Of a stretch of DNA of 40,677 nucleotides, positions 4,281 to 25,056 are shown piece by piece (the first letter of the stretch is position 1; each line of letters starts with the position of its first letter). The stretch is from a virus. The stretch is from IMG/VR virus record IMGVR_UViG_3300027976_000082, positions 1-40,677 of that record; one strand, given 5' to 3'. Position numbers and translations under genes: made by a program. Below the pieces are notes generated by a model. It made no database searches. It was not told the origin of the DNA and saw nothing but the letters and a program-made list of their open reading frames with translations.

Positions 4281-4588
4281 GACAATGACTGATCTTGATA
4301 TGCAGATTCTATAGCGTCAGCGTCAAGGTTACGGACGTTCACGACACGACTTAGATGGCGAAGTAGTTCATCGGTTGGGTAAGGGGCCTCCCAATCGTCT
4401 CGCTTCAAGAAAAGGTCAATGCAGGGGTGACTCACCGCTGCGTACATAGCCTTGGCGTAAGTGTCTCCGATGCCAACCGAGAGCCTGTCATGTTTAACCT
4501 TGGCATAAAGCATACGGCCGTCTTCCAGCTCGCCCTCCCATTGACAGATCGACCACTCAGAGAGCTTGTGGAAGCTATTGAGCTTCAT
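4277..4588 (-). CDS. Hypothetical protein, 103 aa
   Basis: The product contains ISQ-free hydrophilic sequence with GRMLYAKVKHDRLSVGIGDT and AMYAAVSHPCIDLFL. The pattern is reminiscent of small phage proteins with an asparagine-poor beta sheet followed by helices, but no family is certain. The start overlaps the end of the 1101-aa upstream gene by 14 nt, so it is probably translated by coupling at the end of that transcript. It is the terminal gene of the leftward operon and meets the plus-strand cluster tail to tail. Confidence 0.6.
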   Translation of the reverse strand: MKLNSFHKLSEWSICQWEGELEDGRMLYAKVKHDRLSVGIGDTYAKAMYAAVSHPCIDLFLKRDDWEAPYPTDELLRHLSRVVNVRNLDADAIESAYQDQSLS

Positions 4589-7500
4589 GCGCCACTAGCT
4601 GCTGATGGGTGGGCTGCATGTCTGGATATTGCTTGTAGTACCAATCATTTGCCGCTTGCTGGCCTTCTGACTGTAGCCTCTTGTAATACTCGTGAGCAAT
4701 TAGAGTCGGGTCGTAGAAGGGCGGAACCATTACCTCACGATAACGACGGGCACGCTGGAGAGAGTCGAGGTCCCGGACTGGGATGCTGGGGTCAGATGTG
4801 GTTTCGCTCAAGGGGACGACGACGCCGCGCCCTACGTCGGACGGTCCGAACCAACCTTGGACCACAGGCTGTTGCGGCGACAGGGGTGGTTCAGTCGGCT
4901 CCGGCGAAAAAGCGGCGGGGTTCCAAAAATCATCTCGTTCATGATGTAATCTGCGGGTGCGCTGAGGCTGGGCCGGTGTAAGGTCTGACGGATCGGCCGG
5001 GTGGAGCTGCTGCTTTACATACTCTACAAGACTAGGATCCACATCTGGGTCTTCTTGTAAGGATTCTATAGTGAAAGGTTTTGCATCTGGATGGATGCGG
5101 TCTCCAGCATATTGGTCGCTCAGTTCGTAGCTGCTTCGCAACGTTTCCATGATTTTGTTGATTAATCCATAAGTCGTAAGCCCAGCTATTTGGCTGTTGT
5201 GTAAGGCCCTCAACAAATCATCGGGCCACGCATTATAATCGTTTATGGCTTCCTGAGCGATTGCATCAACATCAGCAGAAGCGGAGAATTCTACATCTTC
5301 CCCCAGCTCTGCCCCCATCATCGATGCCGCATCGTACGGTTCTGTTTCAATTTGATACAAGGATTCTATGTCGTTGATCTCCCCGAAATCCCACGAAAAA
5401 TCTAGATCCTCATCCTCACCACTCCATTCACTTAAATCGTCTTCGTCACCGGGACCCCCCTCACCATCGTCTCGACCTGTCATTTCATTGAATAAGGTGA
5501 TCAACGGACGGTACTTGTTTGGATATCCAGAGGAGCCTTGGACGCGGGCCAAAGACCTGTCTGATGGGTTGTAATGCCAAGTTGCTTTAGGAATCCCTTG
5601 AGGGTCCCTCAAAGAGAACGCTTCAATGGCTTCCGCGTCAATAGCGTGGACATACGGTTGGTCTCCGGATCCGATACAATGTCCGAGAATCTTTGACTCA
5701 AGGTCTAGATCAGAGCTACTAGTAAGTTGGACGACCCTCCACCCTTCATAAGGCTTAGGGAGATCGACAACCATCTTCTTATCCAGCGGCACATCATTAT
5801 CGTCATCAAATGAACGGTAATGATTTTCGATGCGTAACAAATCTGCCTGATGTTCAGCAATAACCTCCTTGTCGCGTACCCATTCTGCATGCTCCTCTGC
5901 CTTCTGCTGGACCTCGCCATAAGACAGCGAACTGATGTTAACCCCTTGACGATGGGGAGATTCAAAAGCGGCAAACCAGTTTGCTATCCGTGTGAAATGA
6001 TGACGGTCCAAGCGCTCGTAATGTTTGTCACCGTCATCGACGATAAGTCCATCTTTCCGTTCTGCGAAACGAACCACTCCCTTTTTGACCAGACCGGCCA
6101 ACCATGGCAGCATCCCCTCGACCTCGTATCCCGCCACGAGATTGTCTAACCCTTGGAGCATCAAGGGACCGTCAATACGACTCTTGCCCTCCTCTCGTCG
6201 AACCGTGCCCACGCTTTCATCAGCTCGGAACGCCTTTTGATTTTGTTTGAAGATCCGTCGGCCAGTGTCGGTTTGTAAATTCGGAACAAAATCTTTTGGA
6301 CTTTTGCCAGAAGCTTTGTCGAGCGCACCAGCTAGCTCGTCTGGACGACATGAAAGAACAACAGGGGCCAATGTCTCAATATGTTTGAGCATTGGCGAGA
6401 TCCGATCCAACTCCGGGTCAGGAGGAACATAAATTGCCACAAGCGACTCAACGCCGCCCGCCGCCAACGGGTAGTGGACGCGCGACAAGATCACTGGTGC
6501 ATAACCGGCGTCTTCGATAACCTGTTCGACCTGACGTCGGTTTGCGCTGCTTGACGGATCGAGATAAATGCCAACCGTCCCTAGATCAGAGGCCGGGGGG
6601 TCGTCTGAGGCTGAAAAGCGGACTTGACGAGGACCAGAACTGTATCCGCAGTTGCACCACTCTCCGGTGTACGGGTTACGATGGTCCCCTCGCCCCGGAG
6701 CCTCGACGTAGTCTCGCTCTGGTTCTGTAAGATCAGAGCTTGGCTTGTCCCAAGCTGCGGCCTTAGCGGTTACGGTTAGCGATGATGCCTTCGACCAATG
6801 CCCGTCCGGCCTACCCAAGTAGTCAAGACGCTGACGGGCAGGACTCGAAGGGTCTTCTCCCCATCCGGGGACCTGCTCGGTTAGCTTCTCGGGCAGATAA
6901 TCGAAATTCATTTTACTGATGTCTGGTAGATCTCCACTATCGCTCCATGGGACCAACCCTCCGGCCATGACGTAATTCCAAGCGCTTTGGATGGCGTTCT
7001 GGATCAATTGGGACATGCGAGGGGATCTGTCCTCGGGCGCCGCACTGTTGTAGTAGTACTCTGCGACCGCTGCCCCCGCCGTCTGAGTGGCGTCTTCATA
7101 GCTCAGGCGCTCCTCATTGACGGACTGCTCTATCGACTTCACAGCCACGGACATAAGCTCAAAGGGCTGGACCAATTGGCGCGGGCTGATCAATGTAGGC
7201 TCGTCCTTATTCCATACCGTGCGTGTTTTATCATCAGGCAAGAGCTTTGGCAACGTCACGTATCTGGATTCGTTCGTCCTTAAAGCCTTTCTAAGCCACT
7301 CTTCACGAATATCAAGGGCTTCGTCGGGACTAGCGCCCAGACGCCCTAAAGCGGCCTCTACGACGGTCTCAGGCGCATCTGGACCATATGCATCCATGGT
7401 AACCTCGAAGACATCGTCCTGAAGCTCGTCTGCCCAGTCAAATGGAGCGCTTTGGGCCGATGTGAAGGTGGACAGCCAACTACGCAGCTCGCTTGCCATA

Positions 7501-7880
7501 TCGTCCGTGCTTGATACAAGAGACCAAGCGTGACCATAGCCGCCTTCGTCACGCGGAGAAACAGCTTCAGCCGTTTCGTCTTCTTCTTCGGCCGCCGGAA
7601 ACAAGTCGCCAGTGCGTTCACAAACCTCGCTTACGAAGTCATCATCGCTTTTATCTCCGGTGTTGGAGTATCCGATGCCGCCGTCGTGGACTCCGCCGGA
7701 AGGAGAAATATAGAAAAGAAAGACGGGACCGTCGCCGTGTTCACCAGCCTTCTGCTGATGATGAGGGAATCCGTCCTCGTCGACGTTCCATGTTTCTACG
7801 TCGCCATTGGAGTAGACGTTTCCCTTGCCCTGATTGCCTTGCGACCAGTTGAATATGTCAGTGCTGAAATGCCAAGACAT
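4575..7880 (-). CDS. 1101-aa protein with PcfJ-like domain
   Basis: A very large protein of unknown function. The recognisable part lies at roughly residues 725-800: a conserved GHCIGSGD followed by IEAFSLRDPQGIPKATWHY and SSGYPNKYRPLITLF. This is the (M/L)GxC..Y......SLRD.....AT....N pattern of PcfJ-like proteins, a family known from conjugative plasmids and phages with undetermined biochemistry. A small CNCGYSSG cluster lies near residue 410. The region after 810 is acidic and low complexity, then proline-rich. The ATG at 7880 was chosen because TATAAT ends 7 nt upstream; a GTG one codon earlier would start before the predicted transcript. Confidence 0.75.
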   Translation of the reverse strand: MSWHFSTDIFNWSQGNQGKGNVYSNGDVETWNVDEDGFPHHQQKAGEHGDGPVFLFYISPSGGVHDGGIGYSNTGDKSDDDFVSEVCERTGDLFPAAEEEDETAEAVSPRDEGGYGHAWSLVSSTDDMASELRSWLSTFTSAQSAPFDWADELQDDVFEVTMDAYGPDAPETVVEAALGRLGASPDEALDIREEWLRKALRTNESRYVTLPKLLPDDKTRTVWNKDEPTLISPRQLVQPFELMSVAVKSIEQSVNEERLSYEDATQTAGAAVAEYYYNSAAPEDRSPRMSQLIQNAIQSAWNYVMAGGLVPWSDSGDLPDISKMNFDYLPEKLTEQVPGWGEDPSSPARQRLDYLGRPDGHWSKASSLTVTAKAAAWDKPSSDLTEPERDYVEAPGRGDHRNPYTGEWCNCGYSSGPRQVRFSASDDPPASDLGTVGIYLDPSSSANRRQVEQVIEDAGYAPVILSRVHYPLAAGGVESLVAIYVPPDPELDRISPMLKHIETLAPVVLSCRPDELAGALDKASGKSPKDFVPNLQTDTGRRIFKQNQKAFRADESVGTVRREEGKSRIDGPLMLQGLDNLVAGYEVEGMLPWLAGLVKKGVVRFAERKDGLIVDDGDKHYERLDRHHFTRIANWFAAFESPHRQGVNISSLSYGEVQQKAEEHAEWVRDKEVIAEHQADLLRIENHYRSFDDDNDVPLDKKMVVDLPKPYEGWRVVQLTSSSDLDLESKILGHCIGSGDQPYVHAIDAEAIEAFSLRDPQGIPKATWHYNPSDRSLARVQGSSGYPNKYRPLITLFNEMTGRDDGEGGPGDEDDLSEWSGEDEDLDFSWDFGEINDIESLYQIETEPYDAASMMGAELGEDVEFSASADVDAIAQEAINDYNAWPDDLLRALHNSQIAGLTTYGLINKIMETLRSSYELSDQYAGDRIHPDAKPFTIESLQEDPDVDPSLVEYVKQQLHPADPSDLTPAQPQRTRRLHHERDDFWNPAAFSPEPTEPPLSPQQPVVQGWFGPSDVGRGVVVPLSETTSDPSIPVRDLDSLQRARRYREVMVPPFYDPTLIAHEYYKRLQSEGQQAANDWYYKQYPDMQPTHQQLVAHEAQ

Positions 7881-7896
7881 CACAACAATTATACAC
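7881..7896 (-). promoter_or_regulatory. -10 box for the 1101-aa gene, leaderless start
   Basis: On the minus strand a perfect TATAAT (7893-7888) is followed by 7 nt and the ATG at 7880. No good -35 box is seen 16-18 nt upstream. No Shine-Dalgarno sequence is present. Confidence 0.6.
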
Positions 7897-10758: not shown

Positions 10759-11556
10759 TTAAACCGCATCGAAGCTCTTCTTCCGCTCATTGAAGACGTC
10801 CTTGATGAAGGCCTTCTGGACCTTCCGCAGGGCACGAGCGTGCTTGTGACCGTCGCTGAGAAGAGACCCGGCAAGAGCTGGCTTGCCGGACGGGCCGCAT
10901 CGCACACACAGCTCATTGTGGACGGCATCATCGAGCCGCGCCTTGGAGGTCTCATAGACATCCCGGTAAGGGCTACGCTTGGCGTTTCCAATCCCTCCTC
11001 GATGGTTGCCTGTGACCTTGATGCAAGACTCTGCGATCAAGAAGGAGCGCATCTTGCCCTCATGGTTCCAAGCGGCCCGTTCTCCGCGCTTCTTACGCTG
11101 TCCGGGAGCCAGTCCGAGGTACTTCCACAATTCGGAATGGTCGCGCCTCATGCGGCCTTCGGCTCCGTTCCAGCAAGGGTCGTCTACCGCAGCCAAAAAT
11201 CGTGCGGCTTGCTTGAAACCAACCCCGGGGGTCGAGGCCACGAAGCTTCCTAGCGGATGCCTCTTCATTGCCTTTTCCAATGCCTTTATCAAGCCCTTCT
11301 CGGTGTCGTCAAGGTGAGCGCGGATCGCTTGGTACTCCACAGGGACGACATCGGAGCCAGTCTCTGCTAGCAGGCTTCTAATCCGGTTGTCCTGCGCCAT
11401 CCGCACCGACTCGATGTCGTTGAGAGCTTCGGCGTAGAACAGCAGGTCGCGCTGTGCATCTAAGTATGGTCCAGTGACGGAGCAGCTCTGGCTTTGCAAT
11501 CGCAGTCGCTCAGCGGGTGGGGTTTGGTCACTAGACGATTTCATTTTGCTGGTCAT
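10759..11556 (-). CDS. IS110-like Tnp-domain protein lacking the RuvC half
   Basis: A 265-aa product starting MTSKMKSSSDQTPPAERLRL. After about 70 unassigned helical residues comes a coiled coil, then the helix-hairpin-helix-like STPGVGFKQAARFLAAVDDP, LWKYLGLAPGQRKKRGERAA, GKMRSFLIAES and YRDVYETSKARLDDA. These follow the order of the C-terminal domain of IS110/IS116/IS902 transposases (GLxP...KRG...LR..L....). The N-terminal DEDD RuvC-like domain of full IS110 enzymes (usually 300-450 aa) is absent. The serine expected just after GLxP, before KRG, is not there (GQRKKRG). The protein therefore may bind nucleic acid without transposing. The start has AGGAGG 4 nt upstream. Confidence 0.7.
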   Translation of the reverse strand: MTSKMKSSSDQTPPAERLRLQSQSCSVTGPYLDAQRDLLFYAEALNDIESVRMAQDNRIRSLLAETGSDVVPVEYQAIRAHLDDTEKGLIKALEKAMKRHPLGSFVASTPGVGFKQAARFLAAVDDPCWNGAEGRMRRDHSELWKYLGLAPGQRKKRGERAAWNHEGKMRSFLIAESCIKVTGNHRGGIGNAKRSPYRDVYETSKARLDDAVHNELCVRCGPSGKPALAGSLLSDGHKHARALRKVQKAFIKDVFNERKKSFDAV

Positions 11557-11574
11557 CACTCCTCCTAAGTTGTT

Positions 11575-11743
11575 GCCCAAACGACGCGGTGATTATGGCC
11601 TTTCGGCGGATCGGAAATGGTCGTTTGGGCTGGGCGTCCTGCCTCTGGCCTTGCGGCGCATTCGGGATGGCCCGTAGATCAAAGTTGTCCCAAGCGGCGG
11701 GTTCATCCTAGCCTTGCGGCGCAGACATGATGGCCGCTTGGGA
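11575..11743 (-). ncRNA. Triple stem-loop RNA candidate with GNRA hairpins
   Basis: Read on the minus strand, two full units and one partial unit share one plan. Unit A (11575-11630) and unit C (11688-11743) each have a perfect 11-bp outer stem, 12-nt loops on both sides and an inner GCC-GNRA-GGC hairpin (GAAA in A, GCAA in C). Unit B (11632-11673) has the same inner hairpin (GCAA) and loop lengths, but only a 4-bp outer stem (GGGC/GCCC) because its left arm overlaps unit A. The outer stems of A and C differ at three pairs, all compensated. GNRA loops exist only on the minus strand, which is also the sense of the neighbouring IS110-like gene whose ribosome site follows directly. It could be a guide-type RNA or a structured leader. 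Confidence 0.6.
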
Positions 11744-11750
11744 GTTACCA

Positions 11751-12200
11751 TCACAAGTACAACTGGGAGCGCGTAGCGCGCCCGCGCACTGGGTGGACGA
11801 GTTCTCCTACGGTTGCGAAGCCAGAAGCCTTTAACTCGTCGAGAAGAGCTTGATACTGCGCCCCCTTGGCATTGGCAGAGGCAGCCATCTCCTTGTATCG
11901 CTCCACGATATCTGTCAGATCGGACACGGTCAGTTCATCAACGAACTTATTGATGAACGGAGCGACCTCGCGGTACTTGGACCAGCGAGAAGGGCCGGGA
12001 CCCGTTGAGGGTTCGGTTTCGATGTGCACCCTATCGAGCCGATGGTGATTCGCAACCCGTTGCGCGAGCGCCCACTCTAGGAACTCGTCGAAGTCTGAGG
12101 CTTGGAGGGATTGCGGTACGAGTCCCTTGGCGACGACAACGGGATCAGGAGAGGCCCCGGGCTTTTCCATTTCGCTGCGGATTAGCTCATCAATGATCAT
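11751..12200 (-). CDS. Hypothetical protein, 149 aa
   Basis: The product begins MIIDELIRSEMEKPGASPDP and is mainly helical (FINKFVDELTVSDLTDIVER, then YQALLDELKASGFATVGELV) with a basic C-terminus (RGRATRSQ). No family is recognised. It is coupled by ATGA to the ArdC-like gene and so probably shares its operator-controlled promoter. Its stop lies 8 nt before the triple stem-loop region. Confidence 0.65.
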   Translation of the reverse strand: MIIDELIRSEMEKPGASPDPVVVAKGLVPQSLQASDFDEFLEWALAQRVANHHRLDRVHIETEPSTGPGPSRWSKYREVAPFINKFVDELTVSDLTDIVERYKEMAASANAKGAQYQALLDELKASGFATVGELVHPVRGRATRSQLYL

Positions 12201-13165
12201 GCGGTTCCTTTTGGTTGATTGGATGCTTCCTTGTCGTCCTCATAGGTCTTGCCGATGATGAAGTCGGAAGCCCGCTGGGCCTTGGACGCAGCCTGCACCA
12301 GCAGCTTCTTGTCCTCCTTGAATCGCTTAAGCCATGAGGCTAGGTAATTCGCGGAGTTGTCCTGAACGGGGACATCGATTCCGGCGATAGCGGACACCAT
12401 CGAGGCCCCCATCTCTGCCACAAGCTCTTCCTTGGCGTACGGATCCTTCCCGAAGGTTGCCCAGTCCTTGACGCGGTGCAGGCGGTCTTCGTGACCCGTC
12501 GAATGCACAAGCTCATGGTAGGCAGTGTGGTAGTAGTACTCTGCCGACTGGAACTGCTCCTGATCGGGAAGATGGACACAATCCAGTGAAGGGACATAGC
12601 AAGCGCGGTCTCCGCGATGCATGATCTTGGGAGCGTTCGGCATCTCGTCGATGATCGACTGAGCCTCCTGAATGGGATCGAACTCCTTTTCCTCGATCTC
12701 GGCCGGGATCTTGTCCTCGATGCCTTCGACCTGATCAACATTGAAGACATTGTAGTAGTTGAGCAGCGGGAGCTTGGTCTTGACCGGCTTGCCGTTCTTG
12801 TCCTTGATCTTCTGCCCGTTGACGATCTTATCGACGGTCAAGAGCTTCCAGAAGATCACGAGCGTAGACTTCTCGCCCTTGCGGACCTGTCCGCCCAGAG
12901 CGTCCGCCTGCTTGTAGGTAAGCCAGTAAGAGCGCTTGTAGCCCTCGGTCTGCGCAGTGAAGTCCAGAAGGAAAGGGTTGATGCCCCGATAAGCCTTCTT
13001 GGTCTTCAGGTTGGCATGAGCGGTCGAGAGCTTCCAAGGGCGCTGCCAAGGAACGGTGCCGCCCTCAAGGGCCTCGATCATGCGATTGGTGACCGCCTCG
13101 TAAATCTCTTCCGTGGACTTACCACGGCGAGTAGGCTTAGGCTTTGTGGCGGTGGCGGTGGTCAT
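12197..13165 (-). CDS. ardC: ArdC-like antirestriction protein with zincin domain
   Basis: A 322-aa protein with the two-domain plan of ArdC. An N-terminal ssDNA-binding domain (about residues 15-145) has IEALEGGTVPWQRPW, INPFLLDFTA and the F...QV.KGEKST.V.FWK segment. A C-terminal metallopeptidase domain has YYYHTAYHELVHSTGHEDRL, the HExxH at 217-221, and EELVAEMGA near 246-254 supplying the third ligand. ArdC proteins of plasmids protect incoming DNA against host restriction. The start at 13165 was chosen for its TGGAGA ribosome site. A GTG at 13204 would lie inside the promoter. It is the first gene of its operon. Confidence 0.85.
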   Translation of the reverse strand: MTTATATKPKPTRRGKSTEEIYEAVTNRMIEALEGGTVPWQRPWKLSTAHANLKTKKAYRGINPFLLDFTAQTEGYKRSYWLTYKQADALGGQVRKGEKSTLVIFWKLLTVDKIVNGQKIKDKNGKPVKTKLPLLNYYNVFNVDQVEGIEDKIPAEIEEKEFDPIQEAQSIIDEMPNAPKIMHRGDRACYVPSLDCVHLPDQEQFQSAEYYYHTAYHELVHSTGHEDRLHRVKDWATFGKDPYAKEELVAEMGASMVSAIAGIDVPVQDNSANYLASWLKRFKEDKKLLVQAASKAQRASDFIIGKTYEDDKEASNQPKGTA

Positions 13166-13183
13166 GAATCTCCAAAGGGTTGC

Positions 13184-13219
13184 ATGTGTCCCTAAGTATA
13201 GCACACCCTAGGGACACAT
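13184..13219 (-). promoter_or_regulatory. ardC promoter flanked by an 11-bp inverted-repeat operator
   Basis: ATGTGTCCCTA (13184-13194) and its exact complement TAGGGACACAT (13209-13219) enclose 14 nt. Those 14 nt contain the minus-strand extended -10 TGCTATACT (13203-13195). A dimeric repressor bound here would cover the -10 box. Half-site centres are 25 bp apart. Transcription would start about 25-30 nt before the ATG at 13165, giving a short leader with a ribosome site, unlike the leaderless promoters. Confidence 0.65.
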
Positions 13220-15864: not shown

Positions 15865-16656
15865 TTACGAAAGCCATTCTGATTCTAAGTCATGGCGAAC
15901 CTTGTCGATTGCATTAGACCAACCCCCGCAGCGATAGCGAACGGTTGCCCCAGATGGTGTGTCCTTGGCTCCGCTCTTTTTAGACCACTGCGAGTACTCC
16001 ATGTAACTGGGGACGTTGCCCATGTCCATGGCGCAGGCGCGGACGCTCTCAATGCACCTATCGGGAGTGAACCCGGCCTTGCTGGTGCGAGACGGGTTAG
16101 CTGCGACGCCAGCCGCATCGCACGCCAGCTTCCAAGTGCCATAGCGCTTGATGATGGTCAAAGCAGTGGGGATGGGAGCTGTGAACCGGGATACGGATCG
16201 TCCCTTGGCACGAAGAGTCTGATAGGCAGCCACAGTAAGCGGCTTCCCATTTGCTGCGATTCGCAAAAACTGCTCGATCTGATCATTCGTATAGCGCCTA
16301 GGACACCCGCCTCCGCCACGGGATCGGTAAGAAGACCGGTGATCAAATGAATGCAAAACCTCTTCGGCATCGGCACGACTAACGCCTAGCTCGTCAACGA
16401 CATCGCCAACATTGCCATTGCGCTTGTAAGCGTCGATGATCGCATCCTCTTGCTCCCAAGCCTCAAGCGTACGCTCATAGCGCTTAACGCTGTCTATTCT
16501 GACAAGGCGAGGCTTGAATCCGTGCTGCTCAAACAGTTGGCGCACACGCTCGTGCGACAGGTCGTGTTTACGGCCGATGGCGCGTAGCGTTCCGCCCTCA
16601 AGGTAATCGTCATGCATCGACTTGATCTGTTCATACGGGCGGGCGGTATTAGACAT
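15865..16656 (-). CDS. DNA-binding protein with HTH and homing-endonuclease-associated repeat
   Basis: A 263-aa protein. At residues 20-50 GGTLRAIGRKHDLSHERVRQ resembles a sigma-like helix-turn-helix. From about 120 there are units of the type seen in HNH-associated repeats: YTNDQIEQFLRIAANGKPLT, then PIPTALTIIKRYGTWKLACD (P....I...YGTW..A...AG) and a C-terminal unit (SVRACAMDMGNVPSYMEYSQ, then GGWSNAIDKV). No HNH or GIY-YIG nuclease motif is visible, so it is a DNA-binding protein, not an obvious nuclease. It overlaps the preceding gene by 8 nt. Confidence 0.65.
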   Translation of the reverse strand: MSNTARPYEQIKSMHDDYLEGGTLRAIGRKHDLSHERVRQLFEQHGFKPRLVRIDSVKRYERTLEAWEQEDAIIDAYKRNGNVGDVVDELGVSRADAEEVLHSFDHRSSYRSRGGGGCPRRYTNDQIEQFLRIAANGKPLTVAAYQTLRAKGRSVSRFTAPIPTALTIIKRYGTWKLACDAAGVAANPSRTSKAGFTPDRCIESVRACAMDMGNVPSYMEYSQWSKKSGAKDTPSGATVRYRCGGWSNAIDKVRHDLESEWLS

Positions 16657-21752: not shown

Positions 21753-21856
21753 CCAACGTTCTTAGCGTATTTGGGGTACTTAATGTGAGTGTCGCACCAC
21801 CCACACTTCTGGAAGATCCATTCGCTGCCGTCTTTAGCGGTGACTACGATACTCAT
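21677..21856 (-). CDS. Small zinc-binding protein, 59 aa
   Basis: The frame begins MSIVVTAKDGSEWIFQKCGW and contains C-x2-C-x2-H (CGWCDTH) and C-x2-C-x-H-like (CHICH), a zinc-ribbon arrangement, then a basic tail (NKKPTPRKPS). The ATG overlaps the TGA of the CCA-enzyme gene (ATGA). It lies in another phase over the first 76 nt of the 737-aa gene, so one of the two starts may be shorter than listed. The clear metal-binding motif argues that it is real. Confidence 0.6.
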   Translation of the reverse strand: MSIVVTAKDGSEWIFQKCGWCDTHIKYPKYAKNVGCHICHSVYNRTADNNKKPTPRKPS

Positions 21857-24800
21857 GCCGCAGAGTCTAGCGGTCGCGCCAGTTCGAGCAGCGTGGCTCG
21901 TTCGTTCAACTCGGGATCATCGATTGTGGCTTGGGTCAACTCGTTTAGGATCTGGCCAATTTGCGGGCCTTTTGGAATTCCCAGATCTAATAGATCCTGA
22001 CCATTGACGGCCAACTGGGAACGGTTTGTGGGCTGCTGTTCATTACGAACTTGCTCGATGAGCTTTGCCTGTGTCTCATACTCTGCGTCCGCGCCGGGTA
22101 CTGGCACGCTTTTGCCGTTGGAGTCAGACCAGCGGATGTGAAGAAGGTCGTCGGCGTGGTCTTCGACCTTGTTCAAGAAGCGCCGTGCTCCGCGCTCATT
22201 CGTGAACGGCGCGAACATGTGATGACGCACCAGTTGCCCTACCCGATTGACCCGATCACTGGGATAGCGCAGGCGCTCTAAAGCTTCGCGAGCCATGTGC
22301 GCACCCTCGGCCTCATGCATCTTGCCAGTGCTGCTGCCGTCTGCATGGTCCTTCCGGTAGTAGTGATGATCATTGGTGATCGGATCCTTCCAAGCAGACG
22401 AAGGCTTTCCGATGTCATGAAGAAGCGCCGCAAGACGAACGTCAGGATCGTCAGTGCGTTCAGCCGTGCTGCGCAGAACTGACAACGTGTGCTCGCCCAA
22501 TGTCAAATCGTGGTGGCGATTCTTTTGGTCGTAATTGAAGTTGTCGTAGACTTCAGGGAAGATGTGCGCCAGTACCCCCGTGTCGTATGCCAAACGAATA
22601 GCCTCAGCGGGCTGGTCCGAAGCCATCAACTTGTCCAGCTCAAGCTGAATGCGCTCTGGGGGCAAACCGTCCAGACCAGACGCGGCATACTGCATTTGTA
22701 GACGCGTAGCCTCATCGGGGTCTAGCCCGTGACGGCCCTTGGCCACAAGGGCGCGAACCACGCGCAACGGGTCGTCTTTAAGGGAATCGCTGTGGAGCGT
22801 CCGCAGCGTCCCGTTAGTTATGTCCTTTGCTCCGTTGTGAGGATCGATAAGCCGCCCTGAGTTCAGGTTAACAGCCATGGCGTTTGCAGTGAAGTCTCGC
22901 CTGAACAGATCCTCATGAGGGGTCATCCGATGGTCGGTCTGGACATCAAAGTCGGTGTGACCGGCCCCCGTAGACCTCTCCTTGCGCGGCAAGGAAACCT
23001 CGACCTCGTCGCCATCTTTCTTGAATCGAAAGACGCCGAAGTCCTGTCCGGTGTAATCAACCTTTCCGTCAAGCGCAGTCAGCAAAGACTCAACCTCCTC
23101 GCCGGGAAGCCCGGTCACCATCAGATCGATGTCCTTGGGCTGCTTGCCTAGCATCACATCGCGCACCGCGCCACCTACGGCATAAACCTCTCCGCCCCCG
23201 TTATGCAGAGCCTTGGCGACCTCGTCTACTACCGGATTGGCGAGCGCCAACATGGCCACAGTCGAGCCGAGCTGGTTGGAAGCCGCCAGCTTGGTGTCGG
23301 ACCCCTTGTCATCCCGAAGGTGCACGTTCTTAACCTCTAGCTCCGGATGCTGATAATACCATAGCTCTACCATGTGGCGCACGGTGTAGGGCATGTTGGT
23401 CATCGACCGGATAACCACCTTGCCACCCGGCTCGTACGTTCCCTCGACGATGCCACCCGGAGTGAACTTGCCCGGGATGTCAGCTAAGCGCTGGCCTTGC
23501 TGCCCGACTGTGATCTCATCGTCTTGAACGTCGTAGATGAATGGGACCGCCCCCGAGATCAGATCTTTCGGCTGCTTGTCGGTGTATTTCATGACCTTGG
23601 CCAATAGCGGTCGCTTGGCCTCTTCCTTGACATAATGCAGGTCCACGACCTTCCCCAGATGGAGTCGGGCGTAACCCACTGGACAGCCGTAGTGGTAAGC
23701 GACGAAGTATGTGTCCGACTCGCTTCCGCCTAAGAACCCGTCGACGCGAGCAGCCTCTCTGAGGCTAGCAAGCGGAAAGATCTCAGGCTGGAGCGGAGTA
23801 ACGTGGGGCTTAAACGGATCGGGTTCGTCCGTCCCGATTTCGGGAAAGCCGCCGTTCTCGTTTATTTCCCGCTTAACGTCTGCGCAACCATCCTTGCGGT
23901 GGCGATCATAAAGCTGCCAGCGCGGGAACAGACGATCACAGGTCGGGCACTGGTATAAACCAGAGGGGTTACGCTTCGGTGGTTCTTCGGCGGTTTCCAT
24001 CTCGCCCGAATTGGCCCCGGTGTTTTCCACCTCCAAGTCCTCGATGGTCTTGATGACGTTGTCGTTACCGGCGTATAGCGTGAGCGACTGATCCTCGGCC
24101 CATTCGCAAAGCGAGGGGATGGCGGCTACGTGTACGGGCCAAACTTGGGCTTTATCTCCACCGACCGTAATCCATCCGTAGCAAGCATTATCTCGTAAGG
24201 GGTTCTCGGTCGCGGCCTTGATCGCCAGCTCGCTATGAGAAACGCGGCCAAGGTAAAGATGGCCATCGTTGAAGGCGTAACGAATGTGCGACGATCCCCT
24301 AGGGGCGAATTCATCATTGATCGGCTCTCCTTCGATGTTTGTGATGCCTCCCCACGTCCAACCGATATTCTTGCAATAGTCTTTGAACACGCGCTGTAAG
24401 GACCGGATGTTAACATTGCTCTGAACCTCCCACGTAGCTTTGCCGTTATTGATGATGACCCATCCTACCGCCATCGGACCCTGATGCTGTGGGTCGATGC
24501 CCGCATGCTCAGAAAGCTGCTTATGATCGTGTGAAGGGCTGACCTCAAGCTGTCCGTTGGCATAAACGAATTTGTACTCACCGGAGGTAGGCTCATAATC
24601 AGGCTCATCGTCCCAGTACTGCTGGTCGATGTCAGAGGCTCGCTGCGGCTCCTCTGCCGGGTATGCGTCCCCTGAATAATCTAGGGACGTTTTGAGCAGC
24701 GAGTCTAACGAGCCGAAGATTATGTTCGCCCGTTTGCTAAACCGCGATGTGCGCTCCGTCTCTTTGGCGTTGGGGCAAGGTTCGTACCCATCATTCTGAC

Positions 24801-25056
24801 CGTAAAACTTGCACGTTAGATCAATGGCATATTGACTATCAGGGCTGACCCAAGCGTAACGGCCTCCGTTCACGCCAACATGCCCGCCAAGGCGCTCTGT
24901 CAGCCATCGAGCGGTGACATAGGACTGTCCCTGTTCAGGGCGTCGGTCCCCACGCTTCAGCGGGTAGCGGGTGTCGTCTCCCCAAGCCCGTTCTGCGGTC
25001 TTACAAAGAGCATCCAGTTCTCCCTGCGTGATGGAATCATGATGCCAGATAGTCAT
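21853..25056 (-). CDS. CCA-adding-type tRNA nucleotidyltransferase fused to a long N-terminal region
   Basis: A 1067-aa protein. The last 460 residues follow the class II CCA-adding/poly(A) polymerase plan: VYAVGGAVRDVMLGKQPKDI (GGxVRD and DxD, about residue 620-645), RRDFTANAMAVN, DPLRVVRALVAKGRHGL, then an HD-type phosphohydrolase domain with LAALLHDIGKPSS (about 875-887) and a helical C-terminus. The first 600 residues are unusual: a zinc-finger-like YQCPTCDRLFPRWQLYDRH (near 370) and a possibly GNAT-like FVAYHYGCPVGYARL region (near 460). CCA enzymes are normally 400-500 aa, so this is a large fusion. It may repair tRNA ends during infection. Confidence 0.8.
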   Translation of the reverse strand: MTIWHHDSITQGELDALCKTAERAWGDDTRYPLKRGDRRPEQGQSYVTARWLTERLGGHVGVNGGRYAWVSPDSQYAIDLTCKFYGQNDGYEPCPNAKETERTSRFSKRANIIFGSLDSLLKTSLDYSGDAYPAEEPQRASDIDQQYWDDEPDYEPTSGEYKFVYANGQLEVSPSHDHKQLSEHAGIDPQHQGPMAVGWVIINNGKATWEVQSNVNIRSLQRVFKDYCKNIGWTWGGITNIEGEPINDEFAPRGSSHIRYAFNDGHLYLGRVSHSELAIKAATENPLRDNACYGWITVGGDKAQVWPVHVAAIPSLCEWAEDQSLTLYAGNDNVIKTIEDLEVENTGANSGEMETAEEPPKRNPSGLYQCPTCDRLFPRWQLYDRHRKDGCADVKREINENGGFPEIGTDEPDPFKPHVTPLQPEIFPLASLREAARVDGFLGGSESDTYFVAYHYGCPVGYARLHLGKVVDLHYVKEEAKRPLLAKVMKYTDKQPKDLISGAVPFIYDVQDDEITVGQQGQRLADIPGKFTPGGIVEGTYEPGGKVVIRSMTNMPYTVRHMVELWYYQHPELEVKNVHLRDDKGSDTKLAASNQLGSTVAMLALANPVVDEVAKALHNGGGEVYAVGGAVRDVMLGKQPKDIDLMVTGLPGEEVESLLTALDGKVDYTGQDFGVFRFKKDGDEVEVSLPRKERSTGAGHTDFDVQTDHRMTPHEDLFRRDFTANAMAVNLNSGRLIDPHNGAKDITNGTLRTLHSDSLKDDPLRVVRALVAKGRHGLDPDEATRLQMQYAASGLDGLPPERIQLELDKLMASDQPAEAIRLAYDTGVLAHIFPEVYDNFNYDQKNRHHDLTLGEHTLSVLRSTAERTDDPDVRLAALLHDIGKPSSAWKDPITNDHHYYRKDHADGSSTGKMHEAEGAHMAREALERLRYPSDRVNRVGQLVRHHMFAPFTNERGARRFLNKVEDHADDLLHIRWSDSNGKSVPVPGADAEYETQAKLIEQVRNEQQPTNRSQLAVNGQDLLDLGIPKGPQIGQILNELTQATIDDPELNERATLLELARPLDSAA

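What the first reader, a model, noticed from the sequence alone, without database searches (positions are those of the whole stretch)
11575..11743. Three-fold repeated RNA architecture upstream of an IS110-like gene
Seen directly: on the minus strand two full units (A 11575-11630, C 11688-11743) each have an 11-bp perfect outer stem, 12-nt loops on both sides and a GCC-GNRA-GGC inner hairpin. A third unit B (11632-11673) shares the inner hairpin and loop lengths but has only a 4-bp outer stem. The outer stems of A and C differ at positions 1, 7 and 10, and each change is compensated in the other arm. The GNRA loops appear only in the strand of the adjacent gene. Internal loops vary while hairpins stay constant, which is the property expected of guide loops. 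IS110 elements are known to carry a bridge RNA with two internal guide loops beside the transposase. The match in position and shape suggests a derived bridge-RNA-like molecule. A protein-binding leader is the main alternative.
Basis: partly seen in the sequence, partly recalled or inferred. Interest (0 to 1): 0.88.

Follow-up and report, generated by a model that had tools for sequence, protein, structure and literature searches.

The report
Phage TIGR-TasA guide-RNA array
A phage carries a three-unit RNA guide array next to a small RNA-binding protein of the recently described TIGR-Tas family, so it can probably aim that protein at chosen DNA; relatives in about 80 sequenced phages, with almost freely varying guides beside nearly constant flanks, make the unknown purpose of these systems easier to test.

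Summary
In detail: three tandem minus-strand units sit immediately upstream of the 10759-11556 gene. Each unit has the same inner grammar: box C (CCA or CTA), a 9-nt spacer, box D (CG), a GNRA-capped linker, box C, a 9-nt spacer, box D. Outer stems are 11, 4 and 11 bp. The gene is not an IS110 transposase. It lacks the DEDD domain, scores far above the cut-off of NCBI's TIGR-Tas model (164 against 100 bits), and its predicted fold is closest to TasR and TasH (Z about 18). It is therefore a TIGR-TasA system of the stem-loop-array type described by Faure et al. 2025 (PMC12045711), not a bridge RNA.

In 37 related loci, 93% of motif matches near tas carry a paired outer stem, against 24% of controls; on an alignment the stem covaries strongly (95% paired, 41% when slid by one base). 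In cluster A mycobacteriophages, spacers are only 26-42% identical between alleles although the adjacent tas gene is about 97% identical, as expected of guides. I found no natural target in the collections searched. In 16 relatives, motif matches lie in frame inside tas, most with a full outer stem. DNA binding and biological role are inferred.

The parts
11688..11743 (-).
   Evidence: sequence and motif, fold z -4.6
11632..11673 (-).
   Evidence: motif; weak fold on its own, z -1.3
11575..11630 (-).
   Evidence: motif, fold z -4.8
11561..11566 (-). ribosome-binding site AGGAGG of tasA, 8 nt after the last arm of unit 3
   Evidence: sequence
10759..11556 (-). tasA: 265-aa Nop/Tnp20-type protein without a nuclease domain
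   Evidence: NCBIfam NF052498 TIGR_Tas_endo E 4.7e-48, 164 bits against cut-off 100; TasR 9mty E 1.4e-26 and TasH E 1.7e-12 by profile; fold Z 18

Best explanation
A minimal TIGR-TasA system of the stem-loop-array type. Shown: a three-unit array lies just upstream of a nuclease-less Tas gene on the same strand; each unit holds two 9-nt spacers framed by box C and box D, closed by a palindromic edge stem and a conserved loop hairpin; in relatives the boxes are conserved and the outer stems covary; spacers diversify almost freely in close relatives while their frames stay nearly constant. Inferred from the experiments of Faure et al. on other members: the array is transcribed and cut into one RNA per unit; a TasA dimer binds the edge and loop box C/D motifs; the two spacers pair with opposite strands of adjacent 9-bp half-sites, so that the DNA is opened and bent but not cut. 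Expected target form, by my geometry from the published 8-nt 3' overhangs: 5'-spacerA-(0 to 2 nt)-reverse complement of spacerB-3'. Most likely role, weakly supported: RNA-guided blocking of genes or replication of competing phages or other mobile DNA.
For: Protein: NCBIfam TIGR-Tas equivalog far above its cut-off; profile hits to solved TasR and TasH; model with pLDDT 81 matches TasH/TasR at Z 16.6-18.0, IS621 and ISCro4 at 12.5-12.9, Nop5 about 8. Array: exact grammar three times. The motif alone pulled 19 viral loci, of which 5 hold a tas gene within the fetched DNA, four within about 1 kb. Near 40 related tas genes there are 2.46 strict units per kb, against 0.005 per kb on the opposite strand. 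Stem: 184 of 198 motif matches near tas have at least 6 of 8 outer pairs, with 152 distinct stem sequences, against 8 of 33 controls; covariation score 1.04 against 0.17 when slid by one base (that alignment dropped two matches whose stem did not pair, L006:1514 and L067:3778, and others for number). Guides: in 14-15 sequenced cluster A phages three units had 6, 10 and 10 distinct spacer pairs, mean identity between alleles 0.26-0.42, while the adjacent tas CDS, in the 12 phages where it was located, is 97.4% identical on average. The published stem-loop TIGR description fits point by point.
Against: No natural target found for the window's three spacer pairs or for those of relatives in the collections searched. 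No promoter-like or terminator-like site next to the array, though actinophage promoters need not fit that scan. Unit B's stem is only 4 bp. Only three units, against 13 in the published stem-loop example. No transcript data.
Confidence: 0.88

Rival explanations
1. IS110-type bridge RNA beside a transposase: one RNA with a target loop and a donor loop steers recombination.
For: Distant homology to IS110: Pfam Transposase_20 E 0.008, below its cut-off; NCBIfam IS110 24.8 bits against a cut-off of 140; fold similarity to IS621, Z 12.6.
Against: No DEDD domain in 265 aa; scores far below the IS110 cut-off and far above the TIGR-Tas cut-off; three independent two-spacer units instead of one two-loop RNA; relatives keep the gene at one place in cluster A phages, not like a mobile element.
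Confidence: 0.02
2. A protein-binding leader that regulates translation of the downstream gene; the loops are not guides.
For: The array lies directly before the ribosome-binding site and the protein very probably binds the RNA, so autoregulation may exist in addition.
Against: Spacers change almost freely between close relatives while boxes and stems stay; arrays in relatives also lie inside and after the gene. A leader needs neither.
Confidence: 0.04
3. Box C/D-like guide for RNA (for example 2'-O-methylation or mRNA silencing) rather than DNA.
For: Box C/D grammar and Nop fold.
Against: No fibrillarin partner was sought or seen; hypervariable spacers argue against conserved rRNA targets; characterised TasR had no activity on RNA (PMC12045711).
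Confidence: 0.04
4. A remnant: an inactive or decaying array with a non-functional short unit B.
For: Only three units, one with a 4-bp stem and one with box C' CTA instead of CCA.
Against: Intact tasA frame with a good ribosome-binding site; boxes and spacer lengths kept in all three units; compensated stem changes between A and C.
Confidence: 0.05

Closest known systems
TIGR-TasA with stem-loop array (Faure et al. 2025, PMC12045711; Peromyscus leucopus gut contig)
   Same: Nop-only Tas, tandem hairpins, two 8-12-nt spacers each framed by box C and D, palindromic edges, array beside tas
   Different: Here 3 units instead of 13; constant GNRA-capped 8-nt loop linker; box D is CG (the published TasR motif is UG); actinophage-type phage
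TIGR-TasR / TIGR-TasH (PDB 9mty, 21kl; Salicola phage CGphi29)
   Same: Nop fold over the whole core, dual spacers of 9 nt (8 in the published TasH array), box C/D
   Different: No RuvC or HNH domain here; stem-loop instead of dual-repeat array
Tas homologues in Mycobacterium cluster A phages and Gordonia, Arthrobacter and Rhodococcus phages (phrog_4285 'transposase')
   Same: up to 45% identical protein; array of the same grammar upstream in the cluster A and Gordonia records read
   Different: Mostly shorter, 4- or 5-letter linkers and more units; units also inside the gene in many members of the wider group
IS110/IS621 bridge-RNA recombinases
   Same: Related RNA-binding fold; extended RNA helices around guide loops
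   Different: Lacks the DEDD catalytic domain; array instead of a single bRNA

Membership tests
TIGR-Tas (stem-loop array, TasA) | Tas protein with a Nop domain of the TIGR clade | tested here: met
   NCBIfam NF052498 164 bits against cut-off 100; Z 18 to TasH/TasR; profile E 1.4e-26 to 9mty
TIGR-Tas (stem-loop array, TasA) | Tandem units with two 8-12-nt spacers framed by box C and box D | tested here: met
   three exact CYA-N9-CG-CCGNAAGG-CYA-N9-CG units
TIGR-Tas (stem-loop array, TasA) | Variable but palindromic edges forming stems | tested here: met
   11, 4 and 11 bp; covariation in relatives
TIGR-Tas (stem-loop array, TasA) | Spacers variable between related arrays | tested here: met
   met in cluster A relatives; no close relative of the window itself was found
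TIGR-Tas (stem-loop array, TasA) | Array transcribed and processed into unit RNAs bound by Tas | not testable with these tools
   no RNA data
TIGR-Tas (stem-loop array, TasA) | RNA-guided DNA binding at opposite-strand half-sites | not testable with these tools
   needs biochemistry; target searches found nothing convincing
TasR / TasH | N-terminal RuvC or HNH nuclease domain | tested here: not met
   265 aa, residues 1-27 of low confidence in the model, rest is Nop/Tnp20; no nuclease domain by Pfam; NF052498 is named 'endonuclease' but its match covers residues 40-257 only
IS110 transposase with bridge RNA | N-terminal DEDD domain | tested here: not met
   no Pfam DEDD hit at E 10 or below; IS110 equivalog far below cut-off; too short
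IS110 transposase with bridge RNA | Single RNA with target-binding and donor-binding loops matching element ends | not tested
   three independent units; element ends not sought
Box C/D snoRNP | Nop5 with fibrillarin and L7Ae-bound K-turn guide RNA | tested here: inconclusive
   Nop fold similarity only, Z about 8; partners not sought

The most novel reading that the evidence does not exclude
In this actinophage branch TIGR guides form an exchangeable cassette system: spacers are replaced almost wholesale between close relatives without any known acquisition genes, and guide units are written not only before but in frame inside the coding sequence of the effector at one fixed protein loop, so one stretch encodes both a protein segment and a guide RNA. 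The window's three-unit system would be the minimal form, used as a nuclease-free, RNA-guided repressor against competing phages.
Probability: 0.4. Interest if true: 0.7.

Novelty: new member of a known kind. Interest (0 to 1): 0.5.

Why it matters
The natural targets, spacer origin and purpose of TIGR-Tas are stated as open in its founding paper, partly because most systems sit in metagenomes. Recognising this array shows that isolated mycobacteriophages of M. smegmatis and phages of Gordonia carry the same kind of system with hypervariable spacers in near-constant surroundings. That offers a tractable host, phages that can be grown, and natural spacer-swap variants for deletion, RNA-seq and competition experiments.

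Tried and rejected
Rfam: no family matches. Bridge RNA: rejected on the protein. VIPR (GGY/NN code, PMC13142463): the array does not show that pattern. Targets (spacerA + reverse complement of spacerB, gap 0-2, against three control orders): the window itself gives no hit in the true order better than 4 mismatches. Against 1 Mb of related loci the true order had 1 hit at one mismatch and 81 at two; the controls had 0-3 and 70-91, so no enrichment. Against most of the sequence of ten cluster A phages plus part of an eleventh, no match in the true order at 0-1 mismatch. The phages collection, gap 0 only: four cluster A pairs, four more, the window's three with a positive control that worked, four Gordonia pairs (only weak unrelated hits); an earlier 94-nt query was near the E limit. 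Viral contigs: 0 and 0 for two window pairs, 1 for the third and 3 for a degenerate cluster A target; none of the hits was examined further. Own host genomes: nothing convincing. 118 Mycobacterium genomes: one exact 18-mer, about 0.6 expected by chance; M. smegmatis may not have been among them. A first try with an attB control swamped the output and was useless. Plasmids: none for the window's pairs. The search for related loci with the window protein alone found no viral relatives; an alignment was needed. The paper's supplementary tables could not be read, so whether these phages are listed there is unknown.

Full report
On the minus strand, units C (11743-11688), B (11673-11632) and A (11630-11575) follow one another in the gap between the 11751-12200 gene and the start codon at 11556. 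A and C fold with z = -4.8 and -4.6, B is weak, the whole region z = -3.5. The compensated differences at stem positions 1, 7 and 10 are as stated.

A stricter reading of the loops gives an exact grammar in all three units: CCA or CTA, 9 nt, CG, CCGNAAGG, CCA or CTA, 9 nt, CG. The inner hairpin is the linker plus the closing C and G of the two boxes, and the outer stem abuts box C and box D. The spacer pairs are TCATGTCTG/GGATGAACC, TCCCGAATG/GAGGCAGGA and TTTCCGATC/TAATCACCG.

The protein (265 aa) is called a transposase by PHROGs and matches Pfam Transposase_20 only below cut-off. NCBIfam settles it: TIGR_Tas_endo, E 4.7e-48, 164 bits against a cut-off of 100, while the IS110 model reaches 24.8 of 140. 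Profiles find solved TasR and TasH. The AlphaFold model (pLDDT 81) aligns to TasH and TasR at Z 16.6-18.0, to IS621/ISCro4 at 12.5-12.9 and to Nop5 at about 8. There is no RuvC, HNH or DEDD domain: this is a TasA.

Faure et al. 2025 (PMC12045711) describe exactly this second architecture: tandem stem-loops with two 8-12-nt spacers framed by boxes C and D, palindromic sequences in place of edge repeats and, in some, a conserved loop linker. Their dual-repeat TasR pairs spacer A with one strand and spacer B with the other; the function of nuclease-less TasA and all natural targets were left open.

Relatives confirm the RNA. Of 88 phage records with a match, 76 are Mycobacterium phages and 5 Gordonia. 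In the four Mycobacterium (Fromanvirus-type, which I call cluster A from general knowledge) records annotated, a gap of about 340 nt precedes tas; in those folded or scanned it holds the same kind of units. The motif alone, with no protein, drew 19 viral loci, 5 of which hold a tas gene in the fetched DNA; in four it lies within about 1 kb, in L019 about 2 kb away. Around 40 tas genes the strict unit occurs at 2.46 per kb upstream against 0.005 per kb on the opposite strand.

Covariation. Without selecting on the stem, 184 of 198 motif matches within 1.5 kb of tas have at least 6 of 8 Watson-Crick outer pairs (best of small register shifts), from 152 different stem sequences; controls 8 of 33. 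For an alignment I took 64 units, the window's unit A and 63 of the 76 listed: two matches whose stem did not pair (L006:1514-1563, L067:3778-3827) were left out as probable chance matches, the others mainly to shorten the list, so its 95.1% paired is slightly flattering. Slid by one column it falls to about 41%, and the covariation score from 1.04 to 0.17. The unselected 93% is the safer figure.

Spacers behave as guides. In 14-15 cluster A phages, three units show 6, 10 and 10 distinct spacer pairs; alleles are 26-42% identical on average between boxes and stems that hardly change, while 690 nt of the adjacent tas gene, in the 12 phages where its start was located, are at least 95.9% identical in every pair, mean 97.4%. 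Spacers A and B also combine independently, for example TATCTCCGG with three different B spacers.

Targets were sought and not found. The orientation used, spacerA then reverse complement of spacerB, is my deduction from the published 8-nt 3' overhangs. The window, 1 Mb of related DNA, most of the sequence of ten cluster A phages, selected pairs against 50,697 phage records, three window pairs against viral contigs and plasmids, own host genomes and 118 Mycobacterium genomes gave nothing that I can set above chance. Limits: the BLAST runs needed an uninterrupted 18-mer or nearly so, so gapped or mismatched targets would be missed; M. smegmatis may not have been searched.

A side finding deserves attention. 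In 16 of 37 related loci at least one motif match lies inside the tas coding sequence, nearly all of those matches in the same frame phase, at a variable loop after the LWxYCG motif; in 15 loci at least one has a 6-8-of-8 outer stem (the L065 match, 5 of 8, is doubtful), and no stop codon interrupts the 16 frames translated (that set has L042 in place of L065). In L042 and L043 the proteins differ at this loop just where spacer B differs. The window's protein lacks this insert. The Science paper's main text speaks of arrays upstream and downstream, and sometimes between two genes.

How it most likely works: co-transcription with tasA, maturation to one RNA per unit, binding by a TasA dimer, and pairing of the two spacers with opposite DNA strands, giving a bend and block without a cut. 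Architecture, family and guide-like variation are shown; expression, processing, DNA binding and purpose are inferred. The phage itself looks like an actinobacteriophage: its portal protein is 41.6% identical to those of large Mycobacterium phages.

Noticed in passing
L042 10375-10406, L043 4287-4318, L045, L048 (+416, +476), L079, L082, L088, L090 and others; 16 loci: TIGR-like units in frame inside the tas coding sequence, at one variable protein loop, most with full outer stems: possible dual coding of protein and guide RNA.
   Followed up: partly
L007 2168-3367, L008 2051-3307, L010 2099-3373, L006 2438-3268: Annotated N-terminal extensions of Gordonia phage tas genes contain array units read in frame, so the annotated starts may be too far upstream.
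   Followed up: partly
L002 2070-3580, L003 2046-3556: In some cluster A phages tasA overlaps by 4 bp a gene annotated as Cas4 exonuclease; a link to spacer turnover is pure speculation.
   Followed up: no
12197-13204 -: ArdC-like anti-restriction protein (ArdcN plus MPTase-PolyVal) two genes upstream of tasA.
   Followed up: no
21853-25056 -: 1067-aa protein whose C-terminal part matches CCA tRNA nucleotidyltransferase with an HD domain; the first 600 aa have no match.
   Followed up: no
15865-16656 -: Protein with a homing-endonuclease-associated HNH repeat and a weak sigma-70 region 4 match.
   Followed up: no
4575-7883 -: 1102-aa protein without a PHROG or NCBIfam match.
   Followed up: no
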